A stretch of 20,936 bases of DNA from positions 1 through 20,936 of IMG/VR virus record IMGVR_UViG_3300049002_000018. One strand, 5' to 3'. Of the stretch, positions 2,949 to 12,215 are shown piece by piece. Within the stretch, counting starts at the first letter, position 1; each line of letters starts with the position of its first letter. The position numbers were made by a program, and so were the translations under genes. The notes under the pieces are model-generated. The model was not told the DNA's origin and ran no database searches. It was given only the letters and a program-made list of their open reading frames with translations. Origin of the DNA: a virus.

Positions 2949-3359
2949 TCAGGCCGTGGCGCGGGTGATGGCGCCGGTGGTCGGGAAGGTCACGCTGAAC
3001 TCGGCGACGTCACCGACCGAGCCGGCGATCGGGTTGTGCTGGCGCACCAGGGCCGAGCCGGTGTACTTCGGGTTGGAGGTGCCGACGGCCGAGGAGTTCA
3101 GCCGGGTCTCGAAGGTCGCGACGGTGCCGAACAGCGGCCACAGGATCGAGTCGAGGGCGGACGCCGCGACATCCTGCTTGAAGGTCAGCGCCAGCGATCC
3201 GCTCTTGATCCCGCCAAGGTTCTCGTGCCAGCCGGCGGAGCCGAACGTGGTGGTGTCCTTCTCTTCGACCTCCACGTTCAGCTCGATCTTGGAGCAGTAC
3301 GCCGACAGGTCGGTGCCGCCGATGGAGATGTAGGACTGAAGCAGTACCTGCTTGGCCAT
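2949..3359 (-). CDS. Major tail protein paralogue 2 (short)
   Basis: 136 residues. The N-terminal half clearly matches the neighbouring 250-residue tail protein: both begin MAK-VL, have GG-DL-Y-K-EL, then share VEVEEKDTT, then a WHE--GGI-S block. This pattern is typical of siphovirus tail tube subunits, which stack as hexameric rings with a beta-sandwich core. The C-terminus (SVGDVAEFSVTFPTTGAITR) is a beta hairpin-like tail. ATG start at 3359 with AGAGGGG five bases upstream. A terminator-like stem-loop separates it from the longer paralogue, so the two may be made in different amounts. Which of the two forms the main tube cannot be decided from sequence. Confidence 0.78.
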   Translation of the reverse strand: MAKQVLLQSYISIGGTDLSAYCSKIELNVEVEEKDTTTFGSAGWHENLGGIKSGSLALTFKQDVAASALDSILWPLFGTVATFETRLNSSAVGTSNPKYTGSALVRQHNPIAGSVGDVAEFSVTFPTTGAITRATA

Positions 3360-3490
3360 GAGGCCCCTCTTTCCGGGTTAGTTGATAAAGCGCTGACCTG
3401 CGGGAACGGCCTGATTTGGCCGCAGCGAAGCCCAGCCAGCAGGTGGTGCCTCGGGTATCGGTTGGCCCGGATTGGGCCGCCCACGAAGAA
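3360..3490 (-). other. Leader of the short tail protein gene
   Basis: This is the part of the 174-bp non-coding gap left after the terminator-like hairpin. I see no convincing ORF or clear promoter pair. An AT-richer patch (GCTTTATCAACTAAC on the minus strand) just before the AGAGGGG ribosome binding site could hold a -10 element, but no matching -35 is evident. Confidence 0.3.
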
Positions 3491-3518
3491 GCCCCCGACG
3501 ACCGAAGTCGGCGAGGGC
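3491..3518 (-). terminator. Intrinsic terminator-like hairpin between tail protein genes
   Basis: On the minus strand a stem pairs GCCC with GGGC and CCGAC with GTCGG around a 7-nt loop, with a 3-nt bulge between the two parts. It is followed by GGGGGCTTCTTCGT, a broken T-rich run. It lies just after the stop of the long tail protein gene. The bulge and interrupted T tract suggest partial rather than complete termination, since tail genes downstream must still be expressed. Confidence 0.55.
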
Positions 3519-3533
3519 CTAAGAAGCGGTGGA

Positions 3534-4286
3534 TCAGGCGATGCCCATGGCGCTCATGAACAGCAGCGACGGCGTGGTGCCGGTGACCGTGTAGTTCAGT
3601 CGCCAGAACGTGTCGGTGATCGGCCCCTGGATGCGGAAGACCTGACCGCCGATGCTGTTCGAGGCGCTGAACGTGATCCGGGTGGTCGGGGAGCCGAAGC
3701 CGACCAGGGCGGCGGACTGGATGGTGGCGGTGACGCTGGGCGTGGTGCCCGCGACGCTCATCGTGTGCAGGGTGCCGATGAGGTAGTCGTTGGCGCCGAG
3801 CGCGGGCAGCGGGCCGATGATGGTGCCGGTGCCGGTGGTGGTCCGCACGGTGGGGCTTGCGAGCACCACGCCGCGGCCGACCGGCCAGTTGCCGGCCCAG
3901 TTGCCGGTCCACGGGGCCACGTCGCCGACCGCACCGCCGAGCACGTAGTTCTGGCGCAGGAAGCCGCTGTTGTAAGCGACCGCTCCGTCGTCCGCGGTGG
4001 ACGGGCAGACGGTGACCGCCTGAACCGCACCGAGGAAGGCGAAGCTGCCGTCGTCGGGGAGCAGCACCCCCGTGGACGGGGTGCTCTGGGCGTCCCACTG
4101 GCCGGAGCCGGCGATCTGCGAGCTGGCGATACCGCCGATCGCCTCGTGCCAGGCCTGGCCGGTCGCGACGAAGGCGGTGGTGTCCTTTTCCTCGACCTCG
4201 ACGCTCAGCTCCGCCTTGGTGCTGTAGGTGGTCAGGTCGGCGCCGCCGGCGAATAGGCGCACGTTGTGCAGCACGAACTTGGCCAC
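3534..4286 (-). CDS. Major tail protein paralogue 1 (long)
   Basis: 250 residues. Residues 1-60 carry the tail-tube signature shared with the 136-residue neighbour (VEVEEKDTT and WHEAIGGI). The following roughly 190 residues are rich in Thr, Gly, Ser and Val with alternating hydrophobic residues, suggesting additional beta domains (TTTGTGTIIGPLPALGANDY, ITFSASNSIGGQVFRIQG). GTG start at 4286 with GGGAG seven bases upstream, only two bases after the previous stop. In tailed phages the longer form with extra surface beta domains often decorates the tube. It is probably a virion component; whether it is the main subunit is unknown. Confidence 0.8.
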   Translation of the reverse strand: MAKFVLHNVRLFAGGADLTTYSTKAELSVEVEEKDTTAFVATGQAWHEAIGGIASSQIAGSGQWDAQSTPSTGVLLPDDGSFAFLGAVQAVTVCPSTADDGAVAYNSGFLRQNYVLGGAVGDVAPWTGNWAGNWPVGRGVVLASPTVRTTTGTGTIIGPLPALGANDYLIGTLHTMSVAGTTPSVTATIQSAALVGFGSPTTRITFSASNSIGGQVFRIQGPITDTFWRLNYTVTGTTPSLLFMSAMGIA

Positions 4287-4727: not shown

Positions 4728-5582
4728 TCACGCGAAGCCGGGCAGGATCAGGTGGCTGACCAGGGCCTCGACGTCCGGGTCGACGCGGGAAACGCGCACG
4801 GTGCCCCAGTCGGCGTTGGCAATGACGCCCTGCGGGGAGTCCTTGCGGCGGTACAACCGGGCCGCGAGTAGCTGGGTAGCCAGGGCCACCTCGTCCGGCA
4901 CGGTCGGCCAGCCCCAGCGGGCGGTCACCCGGATGCTCGTGACGCCTGAGAGCCAGGCCGAGTTGGCCTGCAGGTAGGTGATCGGCTGGCCGTAAGCGAT
5001 CGCGTTGTCCGGGCCCGGATAGAACGTGCTGACCGAGGAGTAGCTGCCGACCGAGCCGGTCTCCAGGAGCAGGCCGGTCGAGCTGGCCACATCGTCGATC
5101 AGCAGGCCGGCGCCGTACGGGGACCGAAAGACGCGGCGCGCGGTCGGGAAGGTGCGAGCCGATACAGCGCGGTCCGCGTAGAACCGGCGGCCGCAGATCT
5201 GGTCGATCCTTCGGCTGGCCGCCCGGATCGCGATGTCGATCAGGTCGTCGCGGGTGTCGTCGGTCTCCTTGTTCAGCGCGGCTTTGACCATCGCGACGGA
5301 GGTGTAGTTCTGGGGCGCCGGGTTGGCGACGGAGAAGCCGCCGTAGTCGACGTCGGTAACCGCGCCGGTCACCGACCAGACGTAGGTGTGGTCGCCGACC
5401 TGGTCGGTAACGTAGGTGCTGGCGTCGTACTGCCCGAGGCTGGTGCGGGTAACGGAGCCGAGCGCGGTGGTGCCGTCCGGCTTGTTGATGGCGAGCGCCA
5501 CGGTGGCGTCGGTCAGGACGCCGTCGCGGTCGTAGACGAGGTGCCGCAGGTTCACGCCGTCGCCAAGGTCGTACGTGGGCAC
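4728..5582 (-). CDS. Head-tail connector / adaptor protein (gp6-like) with N-terminal Ig-like domain
   Basis: 284 residues in two parts. Residues 1-90 look like an immunoglobulin-like beta domain (VLTDATVALAINKPDGTTAL, YVTDQVGDHTYVWSVTG). Residues from about 95 are the adaptor: SVAMVKAALNKETDDTRDDL, then DLIDIAIRAASRRIDQICGR followed by RFYAD, which is the helical signature of phage gp6/gp15-type connectors, ending with helical VALATQLLAARLYRRKDSPQ. Connectors sit below the portal and close the filled head. GTG start at 5582, with GGGGAGG six bases upstream. The adaptor domain call is strong; the Ig-like domain is a fold inference. Confidence 0.8.
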   Translation of the reverse strand: MPTYDLGDGVNLRHLVYDRDGVLTDATVALAINKPDGTTALGSVTRTSLGQYDASTYVTDQVGDHTYVWSVTGAVTDVDYGGFSVANPAPQNYTSVAMVKAALNKETDDTRDDLIDIAIRAASRRIDQICGRRFYADRAVSARTFPTARRVFRSPYGAGLLIDDVASSTGLLLETGSVGSYSSVSTFYPGPDNAIAYGQPITYLQANSAWLSGVTSIRVTARWGWPTVPDEVALATQLLAARLYRRKDSPQGVIANADWGTVRVSRVDPDVEALVSHLILPGFA

Positions 5583-5594
5583 CTGCGGCCTCCC

Positions 5595-6920
5595 CTATTC
5601 AGTGGTGATCGTTCGATATCGGCTGCTGGTCGTAGTGGTGAGCAGCCGGCCCCGGGTCTCGGAAACCAGCACCTGATTCGGCGAGCTGGTCCTGCCCGGA
5701 GGCGGTGGCTGGACGGCGTCAGCCGCCACTACGGCCGCGGCGGCGCTGACTCCGATGGAGGCCGAGGCGTCGTACGCGGCCACGGAAACCGCCGCGGTCG
5801 CCGCTGGAGCAGACGTCGTGGCGGAGGTGGTGACCGTTGCGTCCAGCGCTGAGGCGGCGACTGCGGCCAGCTCGGCGGGCGGCTGGGCCGCCAGCGTCAT
5901 GGTCGCGTCGTAGCCGGTGACGGCCACCGAAGCGGCCCCAGTGAGGGCGTCGATGGCCACTGACACGCTGGCCAGGTAGGCCGTAGCTGCCACCGCGGCA
6001 ATATCCGCGAGCGTGGCCGCGTCGACCGCCACCGTGTTCGCCGCCACCGAGACCAGCGCCGTCTCCGCCGAGGCGGACACCGAGGAACTGGTCGTGACCG
6101 TGGCGTCGTTGGCTGCTGCGGTAACGCTGGACAACTCGGCCGGAGGCTGGGCCGCCAGCGCGGTGGTCGCGTCGCTGGCGCTAGCGGTGACCGCCGCCGC
6201 CTCGGCAGGTGCCGAGACAGAGGAGCTGGTCGACACACTGGCGTCGTACGCAACAACCGCCGCGGCCGTGGCCTCGGCGTTGGGTTGCGCAGCGACACTG
6301 GCGTCGCCTGCTGCAACGCTGACCGAAGGCGACTCGGCCACCGGGCTGACCGCGAACGTTGCTGCTGCGTCATACGCGGTGGCCGAAACAGCGCTGGTCT
6401 CTGCCAGCCCGCCCGCTGCCAGCACCGCGTCGTAGGCCGCCGCAGCCACGCCGGCCGTTTCGGCCGGCGCAGACACCGAGGCGCTGCTGGACACCGTTGC
6501 GTCGTACGCATCGCTGGCTACGGCTGTTGCCTCAGCCGGCGGGCTTGCCGCCAGGGTCGTCGTAGCGTCGTACGCTGCGGCTGCGACCGCGGCGGCCTCA
6601 GCCTGAGGTGAGATCGCTACAGCGACCGTGGCGTCCTGCGCGGCGACCGCAACCGCGGCCTGTCCGGCGTTGGCGCCCACAGCGGGTGTAGGCGCCTGTG
6701 CCGCCACATCAACTGCCGCGTCCACGGCGTTTGGTCCGGCCGACACAACCGCGGCTTGGGCGGCCGCCGTGACGGCTGTAGCTTCTGCCGGTGGGGCGGT
6801 CAGCCCAGGAGAGGCGTCGTAGGCGGCTGCGGTTACCGCTGCGGCCTCGGCTGGTGCGTTGGTGCTTGGAGGCCCGCCGGAGTCGGCGATGAGGACCAGG
6901 GAGTTGTAGTAGCCGTACAC
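5595..6920 (-). CDS. Ala/Ser/Thr-rich tandem-repeat protein, putative virion surface fibre
   Basis: 441 residues. After MYGYYNSLVLIADSGGPPS it consists of about 18 imperfect repeats of 19-25 residues with the loose pattern PAE-AAV-AAAYDA-V followed by a Ser/Thr-rich spacer. Examples are PAEAAAVTAAAYDASPGLTA, PAEATAVASDAYDATVSSSA and PAELSSVTAAANDATVTTSS. The last 45 residues differ: a PPPP segment and a basic Thr-rich tail (RGRLLTTTTSSRYRTITTE). The regular YDA spacing suggests a repetitive fold such as a solenoid or beta-helical fibre, but I do not recognise the family. GTG start at 6920 with GGGAG seven bases upstream. It is the last gene of the block of structural-looking genes between capsid and connector. 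The repeats are seen; the virion role and glycosylation are inferences. Confidence 0.8.
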   Translation of the reverse strand: MYGYYNSLVLIADSGGPPSTNAPAEAAAVTAAAYDASPGLTAPPAEATAVTAAAQAAVVSAGPNAVDAAVDVAAQAPTPAVGANAGQAAVAVAAQDATVAVAISPQAEAAAVAAAAYDATTTLAASPPAEATAVASDAYDATVSSSASVSAPAETAGVAAAAYDAVLAAGGLAETSAVSATAYDAAATFAVSPVAESPSVSVAAGDASVAAQPNAEATAAAVVAYDASVSTSSSVSAPAEAAAVTASASDATTALAAQPPAELSSVTAAANDATVTTSSSVSASAETALVSVAANTVAVDAATLADIAAVAATAYLASVSVAIDALTGAASVAVTGYDATMTLAAQPPAELAAVAASALDATVTTSATTSAPAATAAVSVAAYDASASIGVSAAAAVVAADAVQPPPPGRTSSPNQVLVSETRGRLLTTTTSSRYRTITTE

Positions 6921-6936
6921 CGGCGGCTCCCTGCTC

Positions 6937-7266
6937 TCAGATCGACCAGACAGCCCAGTCGAAGGCGCGGCCGGTGCCGGAGGTCTGCTTGAGCGTGAAC
7001 TTGGCGCCGTTCGGGCACATGAACGGCGGCGAGATGAACAGCGGGGACGCGTCCACTGCGGTCACGGTGATTACCGCCGCCTGGCGGTAGGTGCCGCCTG
7101 AGGTGATCGTTTTGCTGTAGACCCTCAGCTCCGCGATCTCGCCGGAGACCATGTTGTTGGTGTCCACAACAAACTGGAATGTCCCGGCCGTCGCGGAGTC
7201 GTAGACGGCGTGCTCGGTGCTGATCACCGCAGTCTGGGTCCCCGAGGACGCTACGGAAGCGGCCAT
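6937..7266 (-). CDS. Small beta-rich structural-looking protein
   Basis: 109 residues from ATG at 7266, one base after the stop of the preceding gene, so translation is probably coupled. The sequence alternates hydrophobic and polar residues (GTFQFVVDTNNMVSGEIAEL, RQAAVITVTAVDASPLFISP) with a GAKFTLKQTSGTGRAFDWAVWSI-type C-terminus, suggesting a compact beta sandwich. An in-frame start upstream at 7290 would overlap the preceding gene and is less likely. I do not recognise the family. Its place between the glycine-rich protein and the repeat fibre suggests a virion attachment or decoration role. Confidence 0.72.
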   Translation of the reverse strand: MAASVASSGTQTAVISTEHAVYDSATAGTFQFVVDTNNMVSGEIAELRVYSKTITSGGTYRQAAVITVTAVDASPLFISPPFMCPNGAKFTLKQTSGTGRAFDWAVWSI

Positions 7267-7267
7267 G

Positions 7268-7546
7268 TCACGTCCCGTCCGTAGTGTCAAGCAGGCCCAA
7301 CACGATGCGGATCAGTGCGTTGTTCTGGCGGGTCAGCGCCTTCACCTGCGCAACAACCTGGGCGTTCGTGGGGTTGGCGACGCCGAGCGCTGTGATGTTC
7401 CCGCTGATCGCGTTGCCGGCCTTGGACTTCAGGTCAGCCAGGTTCAGCTGGTCAACGGTTGGATCGGGAACCTGCTCCGTAACCGTCTGGCGAACACGCT
7501 GGCCGGTCCCATCGAAGACCCAGACGTCGTACGTGATCGTGGACAT
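7268..7546 (-). CDS. Small protein with C-terminal helix, putative fibre accessory
   Basis: 92 residues. Residues 1-30 look like strands (MSTITYDVWVFDGTGQRVRQ), the middle contains LNLADLKSKAGNAISGNITA, and the last 35 residues are a probable amphipathic helix (AQVVAQVKALTRQNNALIRI) that could form a coiled coil. ATG start at 7546 with AGGAGG seven bases upstream. It lies immediately after the glycine-rich protein gene. Function unknown; an oligomerisation or base-anchoring protein for the neighbouring fibre-like products is one possibility. Confidence 0.72.
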   Translation of the reverse strand: MSTITYDVWVFDGTGQRVRQTVTEQVPDPTVDQLNLADLKSKAGNAISGNITALGVANPTNAQVVAQVKALTRQNNALIRIVLGLLDTTDGT

Positions 7547-7555
7547 CTAGGCCTC

Positions 7556-8434
7556 CTAGAAGTAAGTCGTGACAATGACGAGGCCGTCGCCGCCAGCGCC
7601 GCCGGCGCCGGAATTGAAGCCGTTGAGGCTTGCACCGCCGCCGCCAGCGCCGCCTGCGGGGAAGCCGCCGGCACCGCCGGCACCGCCAGCGGCGGAATTC
7701 GAGGCGACCCCGGCGCTGCCGCCACCCGAACAGAATCCGATATACCCCAGGTTGACTCCGGGGTTCCCCGCGGTTCCGGCACCGGAGTGGGCGCCGCCTC
7801 GGTTATTAGCGACCCCGGTTGCTCCGTAGTTATTGCCACCGCGTTCGCCGAACGTGTTGACCGTGTCGGAGGAGGTGATGCCGGTGCCAGCAGCACCGCC
7901 CCCGCCACCGCCTTGGCCGATCGCAACGAAGGGGCTCGAAGTGGGGAAGCTATTTCCCACTTCGCCGCCTAGGCCGCTGGAACTTGGCGAGGACAGGGAG
8001 CCTCCCGGTCCGCCGGCGTCACCGCCCGAGGACGGAACACCCGACTGGGTTTGCGAGGAGGTAGATCCTCCGGCGCCGCCTGGGCCGCCGCCCGCATTGA
8101 AATGGTGGAAGGTGCTTGGGCCTCCGTCACCTCCGGCGCCGCCAGAGGTGTCGTTAGAAGTCGCGTTCGCCCCCGCCGTGCCGCCTGCGCCAACCTGCAC
8201 CGAAACCGACGACGGAAGCGCGGAAGCTACGGAGCTGGCCATTACTCGCCCGCCACCGTTGCCACCGGCCCCGCCATATCGGGAAGAGGCGGCGGCACCA
8301 CGCCTTCCGCCACCACCGCCACCACCGGCGCCGATACATGTCACCTCGACGAGCTTGGCGTTCGCCGGCTTCGTCCACGTGCCCGACGTGGTGAATACCT
8401 GGACATCGACTGCGCCGGTGGGCCAGAAACCCAT
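7556..8434 (-). CDS. Glycine-rich adhesin-like phage protein
   Basis: 292 residues. It begins with a short beta domain (VQVFTTSGTWTKPANAKLVE) leading into VTCIGAGGGGGGG, then long Gly/Ala/Ser-rich stretches with repeated GGAGG, GGGG and GGNGG runs, and ends GGDGLVIVTTYF. The FTTSGTWTKP start, Gly-rich body and VIVT-YF end are the hallmark of phage glycine-rich domain proteins found in fibres and tail tips, where polyglycine helices can pack into a receptor-binding tip. ATG at 8434 with AGGAGG five bases upstream. Unusually it is encoded between capsid and connector rather than with the tail tip genes, which hints at a head-side location. Family likeness is strong; receptor binding is inferred. 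Confidence 0.82.
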   Translation of the reverse strand: MGFWPTGAVDVQVFTTSGTWTKPANAKLVEVTCIGAGGGGGGGRRGAAASSRYGGAGGNGGGRVMASSVASALPSSVSVQVGAGGTAGANATSNDTSGGAGGDGGPSTFHHFNAGGGPGGAGGSTSSQTQSGVPSSGGDAGGPGGSLSSPSSSGLGGEVGNSFPTSSPFVAIGQGGGGGGAAGTGITSSDTVNTFGERGGNNYGATGVANNRGGAHSGAGTAGNPGVNLGYIGFCSGGGSAGVASNSAAGGAGGAGGFPAGGAGGGGASLNGFNSGAGGAGGDGLVIVTTYF

Positions 8435-8507
8435 GACCGCCTCCTAGCTCGGAGGCGGCGGCCTCCAACGTTGGTTGGTAGTGGAATGTTGAGCAGGGCA
8501 GGGCCCG

Positions 8508-8990
8508 TCAGGACGAGGTCCAGCGAGCCAGGCCGTTGGCGTTCCAGACGATCGTGAAGGTCCCGGCGGTGACGCTCTGCGCACCGCCGAAGTAGTTGAA
8601 GCAGACGCCCTGGTCGGCCACCGTGCCCGCGGTGATGGTGTCGTCGTAGACGAGGCAGCCGTAGGCGTTGGTGATGGTGACGTTGCCGGCACCGGCCAGG
8701 TCGGCCGCGTCGAACATGCAGACGCCGGTCGCCGGAGCGGTGAAGGTCTTCGAGGCGAGCGCGCGGCCGGTGGAGGTCCAGTTGGTCGCGTCAGTGACCT
8801 CGTTGGTCGTGGTCCACACGCCGGTGTTGAAGCCGGTGCTGGCGACCGCGGCGTCCTTGTCGGGCGTGGTCGTGTTGTTGAACAGGGCCGCCTTGACGGT
8901 GTCGGAGTCCAGACCGGTGTAGCTGGTGCCGGACACCTGCAGGGTCATGATGTTCCACTCGCGGAACACCGAGCTGTTGGTGAAAGCCAT
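8508..8990 (-). CDS. Beta-rich structural-looking protein downstream of the capsid
   Basis: 160 residues, acidic, Thr/Asn/Ala-rich, with no Lys-rich patch. Key stretches are TSYTGLDSDTVKAALFNNTT and GCLVYDDTITAGTVADQGVC, with C-terminal GGAQSVTAGTFTIVWNANGL. The pattern of strands and small residues resembles head decoration or fibre-associated proteins of actinophages. ATG at 8990 with AAGGAG eight bases upstream. Three cysteines are present, including CMF and GVCFNYF. It is followed by a 73-bp gap with short palindromes. I cannot name the family with confidence. Confidence 0.78.
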   Translation of the reverse strand: MAFTNSSVFREWNIMTLQVSGTSYTGLDSDTVKAALFNNTTTPDKDAAVASTGFNTGVWTTTNEVTDATNWTSTGRALASKTFTAPATGVCMFDAADLAGAGNVTITNAYGCLVYDDTITAGTVADQGVCFNYFGGAQSVTAGTFTIVWNANGLARWTSS

Positions 8991-9009
8991 GATCTATCTC
9001 CTTGCGGGC

Positions 9010-9327
9010 TTACGCCGCGCCGTTGGCGTGGGCGGTGGGGGCGAAGACGGCAAGGTCGGTGTGGCCGTCCGGGTACTCGGTGGTGATCGACATGATCGGG
9101 CGGCCGTCGGCGTCGAGCCGGACGTCCTCGGAGCCGAGGTAGTCCTCGCGCTCGTTGGCCGTCACCCGGACCTTCGAGCCGGCCGGCACCATCGGAGCGG
9201 TGAAGCCCTTCAGCCCGGCGCAGGCGTGGAAGCGGGTGTGCGGCTGGACCTCGCGGGTCACGTCGGTCAGCTCGCAGTTGGGGCACTCCCAGCGACGCTC
9301 GGGGACCGTGAACATGGGGATCTGCAC
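9010..9327 (-). CDS. Small zinc-ribbon-like phage protein
   Basis: 105 residues. The N-terminus has WECPNCELTDVTREV followed by HTRFHACAG, giving a C-x2-C plus H/C pair able to bind zinc. The rest is beta-rich and acidic (KVRVTANEREDYLGSEDVRL, SITTEYPDGHTDLAVFAP). GTG start at 9327 chosen because GGAGG lies five bases upstream; the ATG four codons later lacks such a site. It begins right after a strong terminator, so it may belong to a new transcription unit. Similar small zinc proteins occur near actinophage capsid genes; their role is not known to me. Confidence 0.77.
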   Translation of the reverse strand: MQIPMFTVPERRWECPNCELTDVTREVQPHTRFHACAGLKGFTAPMVPAGSKVRVTANEREDYLGSEDVRLDADGRPIMSITTEYPDGHTDLAVFAPTAHANGAA

Positions 9328-9345
9328 GAGCGCCTCCGGGCATGG

Positions 9346-9365
9346 AAAAAGCCCGCCGGAGCGGG
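9346..9365 (-). terminator. Intrinsic terminator
   Basis: On the minus strand CCCGC-TCCG-GCGGG forms a perfect 5-bp GC stem with a tetraloop, followed by C and five T residues. It lies after the stop at 9445 and before the start at 9327, so it would end transcripts carrying the capsid and glycosyltransferase genes. The surrounding gap (9328-9444) is AT-richer than its neighbours. Confidence 0.78.
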
Positions 9366-9444
9366 ACCACTAAATGCTTGTTCTGTGGTGTTTCCTAGAT
9401 CAAAAAGGGCGCGCCATAATCAGCGTTATGTGCGGCTGGAGCCC

Positions 9445-9618
9445 TCAGTCGGTGGGTTCCGGGTCGGTGGCCGCGGGCTTGGCGGTGGCCCGCTTGGCGG
9501 CTGGCAGCTCTACCGGATCCCCCGCCCAGGGCTGGTCCCCCCGCAGGGGCGCGGGGCCCTGGGCGACGTCGGCGGGCGCCGCCTTCGCGGTGTCGTCCGC
9601 GGGACGTTTCGCTGCCAT
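9445..9618 (-). CDS. Short Ala/Pro/Lys-rich, probably disordered protein
   Basis: 57 residues starting MAAKRPADDTAKAAPADVAQ and ending in PAATDPEPTD, with no hydrophobic core, so likely unfolded alone. Its ATG overlaps the stop of the glycosyltransferase gene by one base (TGATG), a translational coupling arrangement. Coupling and codon phase argue that it is real despite its low complexity. A C-terminal tail, linker or small virion peptide are possible roles; I do not recognise it. Confidence 0.6.
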   Translation of the reverse strand: MAAKRPADDTAKAAPADVAQGPAPLRGDQPWAGDPVELPAAKRATAKPAATDPEPTD

Positions 9619-10469
9619 CAGACCGCCTCCAACTCTCTGTCCAGTCGCGCCAGGGCGAGCTGTTGGTCGAAGGCGCCCTCGTCGAGGAACGCCATGCCTT
9701 TTTCGTGCGTGGTCTTGACGGCGGTGTTGACGTGCACCGGGATGCCGCAGGAGGCCAGCCGGACGCAGAACGACAGGTCCTCGGAGAACGTCCGGGGCTT
9801 GCCCTTCAGCGCCGTCGGGTGCGTGATCGGGTCGAACCAGCAGTCGCCCGCGGTCGCCCGTACCGTCTCCAGCACTGAGCGGTGGATCAGTAGGCAGGCG
9901 GCGCCGGTGCCGGCAACCTCCATCACCTGGTCGCGGGGGTAGTCCGGGATCGGGCGGAAGCCGATCTCGTCGCCGGTCTCGATGTACTCGTAGACCGTCG
10001 GGATGATCTTGAATCGCTCCGCGTACAGCGGCGTGGCCGCCGACCCGGCCTTGTCCCGGACGCCGGCGAAGCACAGCCCGCCCATCACCGGCCGGGCGGT
10101 GGGATCCGCCGAGGCGATCAGCCGGTCGAGGGTGTCCGCCGCGAAGCCCATGTCGCTGTCGATGAAGAACAGCCACTCGCCCTGGGTGTTCTCGAGGAAC
10201 CCGCGGGCCACCTTGTTCCGGTTGGCGGGGATGCCGCCGGAGCCGGTGAGCGCGCGCAGCTCGCCCGGGCCGGAGCGGGCCATGCGCTGCTCGTGGAACG
10301 CGTCGTAGATGCACAGGTCGCGGTAGGACAGCCCGAAACAGGCCGACCAGTTGCCGGCGTCGAGGAAGCCGACAACGGCCGAACCTGTGGTCACCGCGAG
10401 GCAGGCTCCGACGTGTCGATCGGCGGCCTTGTCGGGGCAGGCGCAGCGGCCGGTCCCGGCGCCGGTCAC
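9618..10469 (-). CDS. Family-2-like (GT-A fold) glycosyltransferase
   Basis: 283 residues. The core has PANRNKVARGFLENTQGEWL followed by FFIDSDMGF: the DSD at about residues 104-106 is the metal- and sugar-nucleotide-binding DXD motif of GT-A enzymes, preceded by the typical helix and hydrophobic strand. Later GMAFLDEGAF and an SEDLSFC segment (acidic residues before an Arg) fit the acceptor side. The N-terminus has several Cys residues (CACPDK). GTG start at 10469, overlapping the preceding stop as GTGA. It would transfer a sugar from a nucleotide donor to an unknown acceptor. Its position inside the head gene block suggests virion protein glycosylation rather than host or DNA modification; that is inference. 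Confidence 0.85.
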   Translation of the reverse strand: MTGAGTGRCACPDKAADRHVGACLAVTTGSAVVGFLDAGNWSACFGLSYRDLCIYDAFHEQRMARSGPGELRALTGSGGIPANRNKVARGFLENTQGEWLFFIDSDMGFAADTLDRLIASADPTARPVMGGLCFAGVRDKAGSAATPLYAERFKIIPTVYEYIETGDEIGFRPIPDYPRDQVMEVAGTGAACLLIHRSVLETVRATAGDCWFDPITHPTALKGKPRTFSEDLSFCVRLASCGIPVHVNTAVKTTHEKGMAFLDEGAFDQQLALARLDRELEAV

Positions 10470-10720
10470 GGACGCTTGGTGATGCGGCGCTCACCCGGCG
10501 CGCGGGTGGCGGTCTCGATCCGGACCGACTCGACCGGTTCGGGGTGAGCCGACTCCAACTCGTCGTCGCTGACGAACATCCACCGGGCGGCCTGCGCGAT
10601 CGGGTCGTCCTCGTCGTACGGCTGGGCCGGGTTAGGCACCATGTGCGCGCCCAGCTCGGGCACCCATACGGCGCAGGGGCCGCCCATCGACGCGGGGCGA
10701 ACTCGCAAGATCTTGGCCAT
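10466..10720 (-). CDS. Small protein directly downstream of the major capsid gene
   Basis: 84 residues: MAKILRVRPASMGGPCAVWV, then a Pro-rich acidic middle (PNPAQPYDEDDPIAQAARWM) and a basic C-terminus (ETATRAPGERRITKRP). ATG at 10720 with a strong GGAGGAG six bases upstream. Its 97-bp leader contains the four-armed RNA structure at 10740-10795. Such short proteins after the capsid gene are common in actinophages; its role (decoration, scaffold-related or connector) cannot be told from sequence. Confidence 0.75.
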   Translation of the reverse strand: MAKILRVRPASMGGPCAVWVPELGAHMVPNPAQPYDEDDPIAQAARWMFVSDDELESAHPEPVESVRIETATRAPGERRITKRP

Positions 10721-10817: not shown

Positions 10818-12215
10818 TTACGCCGAGGTCTTGTCCACCAGCAGTCGGAACGCCGCGAGGTTCGCCGCGTCCGCGCCCGTGCGCCAGTACGCGAAGTAGC
10901 CGCGCCGGCCGTCGGGCAGGTTGTTGGCAGTGTTGAACAGCTGCGGGATGTACTCGACGGACATGCCGCCGGGCTTGTCGACGATCACGTAGTTGCTGAA
11001 GTCGCCGAACAGGATCTCGTTGTCCAGCGCCGTGGTCGTCTGGGTGGTCGGGGCGTCGTCCGACTCGACAACCGGCCGGTTGAGCCAGCGGTCCGCCACA
11101 GCCTGGGTCAGGTCGCCCGAGTAGGACGAGGACCAGGCCGTGCCCAGCCGCTTCACAGCCAGGCTGTAGAGCGGGTTGGTCAGGAAGGTGGACTTCCCGC
11201 GCCAGCGCACCGGGACGGCCCGGTACAGCGCGTGGATGTCGACCTCGCCGATCGTCGCCGCGGTGGTCGAGGTGACCTGCACGCCCGAGGACGCGTTGGC
11301 CGCGGTGAAGATGCCCTTCGGCTGGTTCGAGGAACCCAGACCGCTGGCGTGGGCGACGCCCTCCAGGCGGTCCTTGGCGTCCGCGAACAGCATCATCACG
11401 TCGCTGGTCAGGTTGCTGATGTCCTGGAACGCCGCGATGGAGCCCTGCACGAAGGCCTGCGCGATGTTGGTCGGGATCGACACCGAGCCCATGGTCGGGG
11501 TGTCATCCGACACCTCTGCCAGCTCGCCGTCCCACGACGCGGTGACGCCGGCCGTGGTGACACCATGCCAGACGGTCTCGCCGTTGTTCAGCGTGACGAC
11601 CCGCGACAGGCCGCGGATCACGTTGCTGGAGCCGCTGTTCGTCAGGATCAGCGTCGGGTCCAGGTGGGTCGGCAGCAGGTACCCGCCGTTGGTGTTCGAG
11701 CCCACCGACATCGCGGTGCGCTCCTCGGGCGTGAGCAGCTCGGAGCGGCCCATCATGAGCTTGGCGAAGCCCGACTCGTACTCGGGACGCGACCGGCCCA
11801 GCAGCTCCTCGGCCCACTCACGGCCGCCGGCCTGGCCCGAGTGACGGTTCAGCAGCCGCTCGAAGTGCCGCTGGTTGTCGCCGTCGATCTCGCGGCCCTC
11901 GTTGGCGCGGATGATCGCGCCGACCAGGTTCTGGCGAGTCGCCGCGGGTCCACCGTTGATGGGCGCGAACGGGTCCTGGCGCGAGCCAACCTGCGTGGAG
12001 CCCCAGCGGGCGCGGGACTCGGCGACGCGGGCCGCACGGGCCTCGGTCTCCTCGGCCGCGGACACCTGGCCACGGACCGTGGTCTCCTCGGTGTCGAGGG
12101 TGTCCCAGCGGGTCTGCTGCTCGTCGGTCAGGGCCGCCTCACCGGCGGCCTCGTGGATGCCGCGCCGCTCTGCCTCGATGGCCTCGAGCCGGGCGCGGAG
12201 TTCAGCCAGATTCAT
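10818..12215 (-). CDS. Major capsid protein, HK97 fold
   Basis: 465 residues. Residues 1-75 are a highly charged helical segment (MNLAELRARLEAIEAERRGI onward), the delta-domain scaffold typical of HK97-type capsid proteins and removed by the prohead protease. The body contains GGYLLPTHLDPTLILTNSGS, a FVQGSIAAFQDISNLTSDVM spine helix region, GSSNQPKGIF, and a C-terminal VEYIPQLFNTANNLPDGRRG. These are hallmark HK97-fold features. ATG start at 12215, five bases after the protease stop, with AAGGGG eight bases upstream. It forms the icosahedral shell. The larger open frame upstream (to 12587) only shadows the protease gene. Confidence 0.93.
   Translation of the reverse strand: MNLAELRARLEAIEAERRGIHEAAGEAALTDEQQTRWDTLDTEETTVRGQVSAAEETEARAARVAESRARWGSTQVGSRQDPFAPINGGPAATRQNLVGAIIRANEGREIDGDNQRHFERLLNRHSGQAGGREWAEELLGRSRPEYESGFAKLMMGRSELLTPEERTAMSVGSNTNGGYLLPTHLDPTLILTNSGSSNVIRGLSRVVTLNNGETVWHGVTTAGVTASWDGELAEVSDDTPTMGSVSIPTNIAQAFVQGSIAAFQDISNLTSDVMMLFADAKDRLEGVAHASGLGSSNQPKGIFTAANASSGVQVTSTTAATIGEVDIHALYRAVPVRWRGKSTFLTNPLYSLAVKRLGTAWSSSYSGDLTQAVADRWLNRPVVESDDAPTTQTTTALDNEILFGDFSNYVIVDKPGGMSVEYIPQLFNTANNLPDGRRGYFAYWRTGADAANLAAFRLLVDKTSA

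What the first reader, a model, noticed from the sequence alone, without database searches (positions are those of the whole stretch)
5595..10720. Five-kilobase surface-protein module with its own glycosyltransferase between capsid and connector
In typical HK97-like phages the capsid gene is followed by connector genes. Here nine genes intervene: a small capsid-adjacent protein, a GT-A glycosyltransferase with DSD, a disordered peptide, a zinc-ribbon protein, three small beta-rich or helical proteins, a Gly-rich adhesin-like protein and an Ala/Ser/Thr repeat protein. The gene order suggests head-side fibres or decorations, with Ser/Thr-rich spacers as possible sugar acceptors. This combination may be an undescribed glycosylated capsid-appendage system.
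Basis: partly seen in the sequence, partly recalled or inferred. Interest (0 to 1): 0.66.

Follow-up and report, generated by a model that had tools for sequence, protein, structure and literature searches.

The report
Capsid glycosyltransferase beside swappable virion-appendage genes
In a large group of phages that probably infect actinobacteria, the coat-protein gene is followed by a small gene and a sugar-transferase gene, and next to them is a slot where different phages carry different surface-protein or sugar-modifying genes; this phage fills the slot with seven such genes, so it has two modules side by side, not one dedicated system.

Summary
The nine genes are real. They form separable modules rather than one system. 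(1) MCP–p84–GT is a conserved capsid cassette. All 11 loci found by MCP similarity alone, with an MCP at least 50% identical and enough downstream DNA, carry the GT; 77 non-redundant loci carry MCP, GT and connector. In 30 of the 77 the connector follows the GT directly, including a close relative with 72% MCP identity, L004. The GT has a confident GT-A fold with an invariant DxD and looks catalytically intact. (2) The GT–connector interval is an insertion slot. Relatives put second GTs, epimerases, methyltransferases, 2OG-Fe oxygenases or beta-rich and repeat proteins there. (3) The window's insert is itself a mosaic. ZnR105–b160 is an independent pair (79 of 88 b160 loci, most without the GT), Gly292–h92 recurs in L131, and Ala-repeat ORFs were found only in b160 loci. 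Best reading: the GT glycosylates the capsid, probably the MCP, while the neighbours are exchangeable virion appendages. Whether the GT also sugars the appendages is open. No virion data exist. New variant of a known kind.

The parts
10818..12215 (-). HK97-fold major capsid protein, likely acceptor of the GT (inferred)
   Evidence: PHROG 10, E 1.2e-44; homologues 55-72% identical in L002-L016
10466..10720 (-). p84: small conserved protein between MCP and GT, conserved C-terminal ATRxPGExR-type motif
   Evidence: present in 81 of 92 non-redundant MCP+GT loci; sequences; no Pfam, PHROG or NCBIfam match
9618..10394 (-). GT-A glycosyltransferase (258 aa from a GTG start; the longer ORF reaches 10469)
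   Evidence: PHROG 34859 glycosyltransferase, E 1.6e-16; invariant RN, DxD, ED and H-x-K columns; AlphaFold pLDDT 95.6; VIA Z 20.1 to STIV A197, Z about 18 to LH3
9445..9618 (-). short disordered Ala/Pro-rich peptide overlapping the GT stop, with an RGDxPWxG motif shared with L093
9010..9327 (-). ZnR105: zinc-ribbon-like protein, obligate-looking partner of b160
   Evidence: 79 loci, all of them among the 88 b160 loci
8508..8990 (-). b160: beta-rich putative virion appendage protein (PHROG 644 family, function unknown)
   Evidence: AlphaFold pLDDT 91.5; no PDB match with E at or below 0.001; BFVD matches include a structural protein of phage 7-7-1; MiniFlayer gp6 homologue directly after its MCP
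7556..8434 (-). Gly292: glycine-rich adhesin-like protein
   Evidence: PF21722 at 43 bits; tail-fibre and minor-tail PHROGs; homologue in L131 between GT and connector
7268..7546 (-). h92: small protein with a helical C terminus, partner of Gly292
   Evidence: only other homologue found is in L131, directly behind its Gly-rich protein
6937..7290 (-). b117: small beta-rich protein
   Evidence: 11 homologous loci, one (L246) between MCP and connector
5595..6920 (-). Ala441: Ala/Ser/Thr/Val repeat protein, period about 22 aa (xAYDATVxxxxxxAPAExxxV), likely a beta-repeat fibre or spacer (inferred)
   Evidence: comparable repeat ORFs in 5 other b160 loci and in none of 167 non-b160 loci
4728..5582 (-). 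head-tail adaptor with an extra N-terminal domain of about 80 aa
   Evidence: PHROG 442, E 4.3e-23; the extension is more common in loci with long inserts

Best explanation
The region is two adjacent modules. Module 1 is a conserved capsid cassette, MCP-p84-GT, in which a GT-A enzyme most likely transfers a sugar from a host nucleotide-sugar onto the capsid, probably the MCP. Module 2 is an exchangeable insertion slot between the GT and the head-tail adaptor. This phage carries there ZnR105-b160, Gly292-h92, b117 and an Ala-repeat protein, which most likely build a head- or neck-side appendage for surface adhesion. Shown: gene content, conservation, enzyme motifs and predicted fold, and modularity across relatives. 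Inferred: the acceptor, the sugar, the virion location and the adhesion role.
For: GT tracks the MCP: 11 of 11 loci fetched by MCP similarity, with MCP at least 50% identical and enough downstream DNA, carry it. 77 non-redundant MCP+GT+connector loci have inserts ranging from none (30) to about 8 kb. p84 accompanies the GT in 81 of 92. GT active-site motifs are invariant and the model is a confident GT-A fold. Prophages of Nonomuraea, Acrocarpospora, Streptomyces, Amycolatopsis and Spongiactinospora carry the cassette. Relatives' inserts hold more sugar-related genes: a second GT, an epimerase, 2OG-Fe oxygenase, deacetylase, nucleotide-sugar dehydrogenase and methyltransferase-like genes. b160 and its partners occur elsewhere without the GT. 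The b160 fold recurs in a virion protein of phage 7-7-1, which has capsid fibres, and a b160 homologue sits directly behind the MCP of satellite MiniFlayer. Capsid glycosylation by phage GTs is established in mycobacteriophages Che8 and Corndog (PMC12363180).
Against: No virion proteomics or glycan data for any member. In isolated Gordonia and Pelagibacter phages b160 homologues lie away from the head genes, in Keelan directly among minor tail genes, so b160 could serve the tail. The 7-7-1 match is structural only; the profile comparison did not confirm it (probability 1.3%). GT co-inheritance with the MCP does not prove that the MCP is the acceptor; p84 is as good a candidate by linkage.
Confidence: 0.65

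Rival explanations
1. One coupled glycosylated-appendage system: the GT glycosylates the Ser/Thr-rich repeat or Gly-rich appendage proteins beside it.
For: Adjacency in the window; relatives with long inserts often combine extra sugar genes and beta-rich or repeat proteins in the same interval (L071, L074, L220, L024); Ser/Thr are abundant in Ala441.
Against: GT without any insert in 30 of 77 loci, including a close relative, L004; ZnR105-b160 and Ala-repeat ORFs mostly without the GT.
Confidence: 0.13
2. The GT acts on the host surface (receptor masking or lipid/teichoic-acid modification) and merely sits in the head operon.
For: Many phage GTs modify host glycans (general knowledge); TarP, WrtF and GlfT2 appear in the structural match list.
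Against: Tight linkage to MCP and p84 across diverse phages and prophages, in the late structural region rather than among lysogenic-conversion genes; no membrane or flippase partner gene recognised beside it in the window.
Confidence: 0.12
3. The seven downstream genes are tail-fibre or baseplate genes placed in the head module by recombination, used at the tail tip.
For: In several isolates b160 homologues lie in or near the tail region; Gly292 resembles minor tail and tail-fibre PHROGs; a GH-like apiosidase follows b160 in L220.
Against: In several loci b160 lies between the MCP and the adaptor or tail genes; MiniFlayer gp6 is directly behind the MCP.
Confidence: 0.25

Closest known systems
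Virion glycosylation in mycobacteriophages Che8, Corndog and Myrna (Freeman et al. 2023, known here through PMC12363180 and PMC11256854)
   Same: Phage-encoded glycosyltransferase, phages of actinobacteria, capsid protein as likely acceptor.
   Different: No tblastn similarity between this GT and any record of those phages at E 1e-5. In the related F1 phage Maravista the GTs lie near the 3' end of the genome, whereas here the GT is fixed between the capsid and connector genes.
phi29 head fibres, T4 Hoc and phage 7-7-1 capsid fibres
   Same: Proteins that protrude from the head; 7-7-1 has a structural protein with a b160-like predicted domain.
   Different: No sequence homology shown; position on the virion unknown; the 7-7-1 fibre protein itself is not identified in the paper.
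MiniFlayer satellite adsorption module (Streptomyces)
   Same: b160 homologue directly behind the MCP and before the adaptor; the authors propose that hypothetical proteins next to the tail fibre may aid attachment.
   Different: No GT or ZnR105 homologue detected there; podovirus-like satellite; a 1376-aa protein of its own.
Glycine-rich phage adhesins (Gly_rich_2, tail-fibre PHROGs)
   Same: Gly292 matches PF21722 above the cut-off and tail-fibre PHROGs.
   Different: Encoded in the head module here; no fibre shaft fused to it.

Membership tests
GT-A fold glycosyltransferase | DxD metal-binding motif | tested here: met
   D79 and D81 invariant in 83 sequences
GT-A fold glycosyltransferase | GT-A fold | tested here: met
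   AlphaFold model pLDDT 95.6; Z 14-20 to many GT-A enzymes
GT-A fold glycosyltransferase | Transferase activity | not testable with these tools
   Conserved ED and C-terminal H-x-K columns are only consistent with it
Virion-glycosylating phage GT (Che8 gp110 / Corndog gp38 type) | Sequence kinship with those GTs | tested here: inconclusive
   tblastn of phage records gave 4 hits, none of them mycobacteriophages; distant kinship not excluded
Virion-glycosylating phage GT (Che8 gp110 / Corndog gp38 type) | Sugar on virion proteins | not testable with these tools
   needs mass spectrometry
Coupled glycosylated-appendage system | GT and appendage genes co-occur across relatives | tested here: not met
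   30 of 77 loci have no insert; b160 between GT and connector in 7 of 77
Glycine-rich adhesin (PF21722) | Profile score above the curated cut-off | tested here: met
   43 versus 24.3 bits for Gly292
Head fibre / capsid decoration | Gene in the head module near the MCP | tested here: met
Head fibre / capsid decoration | Protein present on the capsid | not testable with these tools
   needs proteomics and cryo-EM
Phage 7-7-1 structural protein 7-7-1_000107 family (b160) | Shared fold | tested here: inconclusive
   Foldseek BFVD E 1.2e-5, TMq 0.70, identified with 7-7-1_000107 by its length of 502 aa; the sequence-profile comparison did not support it

The most novel reading that the evidence does not exclude
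The MCP-GT-adaptor interval is a dedicated virion-modification island: the GT, joined in some relatives by 2OG-Fe oxygenases, second GTs, epimerases and methyltransferases, builds a modified-residue glycan coat on the capsid, and the adaptor's extra N-terminal domain anchors an exchangeable, possibly glycosylated neck appendage.
Probability: 0.15. Interest if true: 0.8.

Novelty: new variant of a known kind. Interest (0 to 1): 0.5.

Why it matters
It points to capsid glycosylation as a conserved trait, co-inherited with the capsid gene, of a large phage group found in metagenomes and actinomycete prophages, beyond the few mycobacteriophages where it has been shown. It also gives cultivable prophages in which it can be tested. 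It separates the enzyme from the appendages, so each can be tested alone, and it flags b160 (PHROG 644), a widespread family with no solved relative found here, as a likely virion surface protein.

Tried and rejected
Coupled GT-appendage module: rejected as a general rule. GT as a member of a named Pfam or NCBIfam family: only a sub-threshold GT2 hit and none in NCBIfam. LH3 and collagen-galactosyltransferase resemblance as evidence for a hydroxylysine-type pathway: not used, because the match falls on residues 293-536 of LH3 (as I recall, its non-catalytic accessory domain) and many GT-A enzymes score nearly as well. b160 in the PDB: no match with E at or below 0.001. Adaptor extension versus insert length: 17 of 20 extended adaptors versus 17 of 57 others have inserts over 1 kb, Fisher p 4e-5, but only about 3 to 0 independent pairs, so not significant once relatedness is considered. 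Gly292 and the 1419-aa L188 repeat protein against phage records: no match, low-complexity filter on. b117 versus the DUF4082 protein of L009: unrelated. An early distance table used HMM instead of sequence coordinates; it was redone. Freeman 2023 itself was not held.

Full report
What is there. The window is a 20.9-kb virus record of a siphovirus-like phage, with genes on the minus strand: DnaB-like helicase, several small genes, TerL, portal, protease, MCP, then nine genes, then head-tail adaptor, tail terminator, two related major tail proteins, two tail genes and what looks like the start of a tape measure. The nine genes are p84, GT, a disordered peptide, ZnR105, b160, Gly292, h92, b117 and Ala441. 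Two of the frames (Gly292, Ala441) are atypical by codon composition. Gly292 is backed by Pfam and by a homologue in L131. Ala441 rests on its repeat order and on similar ORFs elsewhere.

Relatives. I fetched relatives by MCP, connector, GT, b160 and b117, and searched all open frames with iterated profiles (redone with correct coordinates). After removing GTs at least 90% identical, 114 GT loci remain, and 77 hold MCP, GT and connector. In 30 of them no gene fits between GT and connector, 13 have 150-700 nt, 23 have 0.7-3 kb and 11 have more than 3 kb. b160 lies between GT and connector in 7. p84 is present in 81 of 92 loci with MCP and GT. To avoid selecting on the GT, I looked only at loci fetched by MCP similarity: all 11 with MCP identity of at least 50% and enough downstream DNA have the GT. 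More distant MCPs have it in some cases only. The GT therefore travels with the capsid gene.

The enzyme. The GT has invariant RN, DxD, ED and H-x-K positions (near-invariant for N) and a high-confidence GT-A model. The best structural matches are STIV A197 (Z 20.1), LH3, mimivirus R699, Mnn9 and ColGalT1. Donor and acceptor cannot be read from this.

The slot. In relatives the interval holds a second GT family, NAD-dependent epimerases, methyltransferase-like proteins, 2OG-Fe(II) oxygenases, a PhyH-type oxygenase, a polysaccharide deacetylase, a UDP-glucose-dehydrogenase-like protein, a GH-like apiosidase and beta-rich or repeat proteins. It looks like a hot spot for genes that decorate the virion chemically or structurally. 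The adaptor carries an extra N-terminal domain of about 80 aa in 20 of 77 loci, mostly those with long inserts, but this is not significant after accounting for relatedness.

The window's insert is a mosaic. ZnR105 was found only with b160 (79 of 88 b160 loci), in head or tail regions of very different phages, mostly without the GT. Ala-repeat ORFs of the same style occur in six loci, all with b160, and in none of 167 without it; L178 and L188 show MCP ... ZnR105-b160 ... Ala repeat with no GT. Gly292 and h92 recur together in L131 behind a GT. So the appendage part does not depend on the GT.

What b160 may be. It belongs to the PHROG 644 family (39 of 63 homologues match). The model is confident (pLDDT 91.5) with no PDB match. 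Among predicted viral structures it matches a structural protein of Agrobacterium phage 7-7-1 and a protein of Atu_ph07. 7-7-1 has capsid fibres whose protein is unknown (PMC12796354), and Atu_ph07 has capsid-associated whiskers (PMC6102473). This is a lead, not a proof: sequence profiles do not confirm the 7-7-1 match. In MiniFlayer the homologue lies directly behind the MCP; the authors suggest that hypothetical proteins of its putative adsorption module may aid attachment (PMC10690885).

Interpretation. The simplest reading is a conserved capsid-glycosylation cassette next to an exchangeable appendage slot. Phage capsid glycosylation is known in mycobacteriophages (PMC12363180), where a Che8-related phage carries its GTs near the 3' end of the genome (PMC11256854). 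Here the GT is locked to the capsid gene in a wide group that includes prophages of Nonomuraea, Acrocarpospora, Streptomyces and Amycolatopsis. That the acceptor is the MCP, that the sugar comes from host nucleotide-sugars, and that the appendage is on the head or neck are inferences.

Noticed in passing
window 2949-4286 (-): Two related major tail proteins in tandem (250 and 136 aa), conserved as a pair in many relatives; a similar duplication is reported for Rhodococcus cluster CB phages (PMC13313380).
   Followed up: partly
L074, L160, L225, L024 (GT-connector interval): 2OG-Fe(II) or PhyH-type oxygenases next to capsid GTs in several relatives, suggesting hydroxylation followed by glycosylation of virion proteins.
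   Followed up: partly
L220:9499-10833, L241:9435-10853: Apiosidase/collagen-binding-like glycoside hydrolase (Pfam hit in L220; L241 looks similar) directly behind b160, a possible enzymatic tip of the appendage.
   Followed up: no
L062 (MiniFlayer) 5186-5620: MiniFlayer gp6, annotated hypothetical, belongs to the b160 family (profile probability 99.5%) and could be one of its attachment proteins.
   Followed up: partly
window 9010-9327 (-): ZnR105 was found only together with b160; why a zinc-ribbon protein is needed for this beta protein (assembly factor?) is unexplained.
   Followed up: no
L005:9607-10140, L024:568-1227: HNH-type endonuclease-like genes inserted right after the MCP, and a resolvase-like gene in L099's GT-connector gap, possible agents of the gene swapping at this site.
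   Followed up: no
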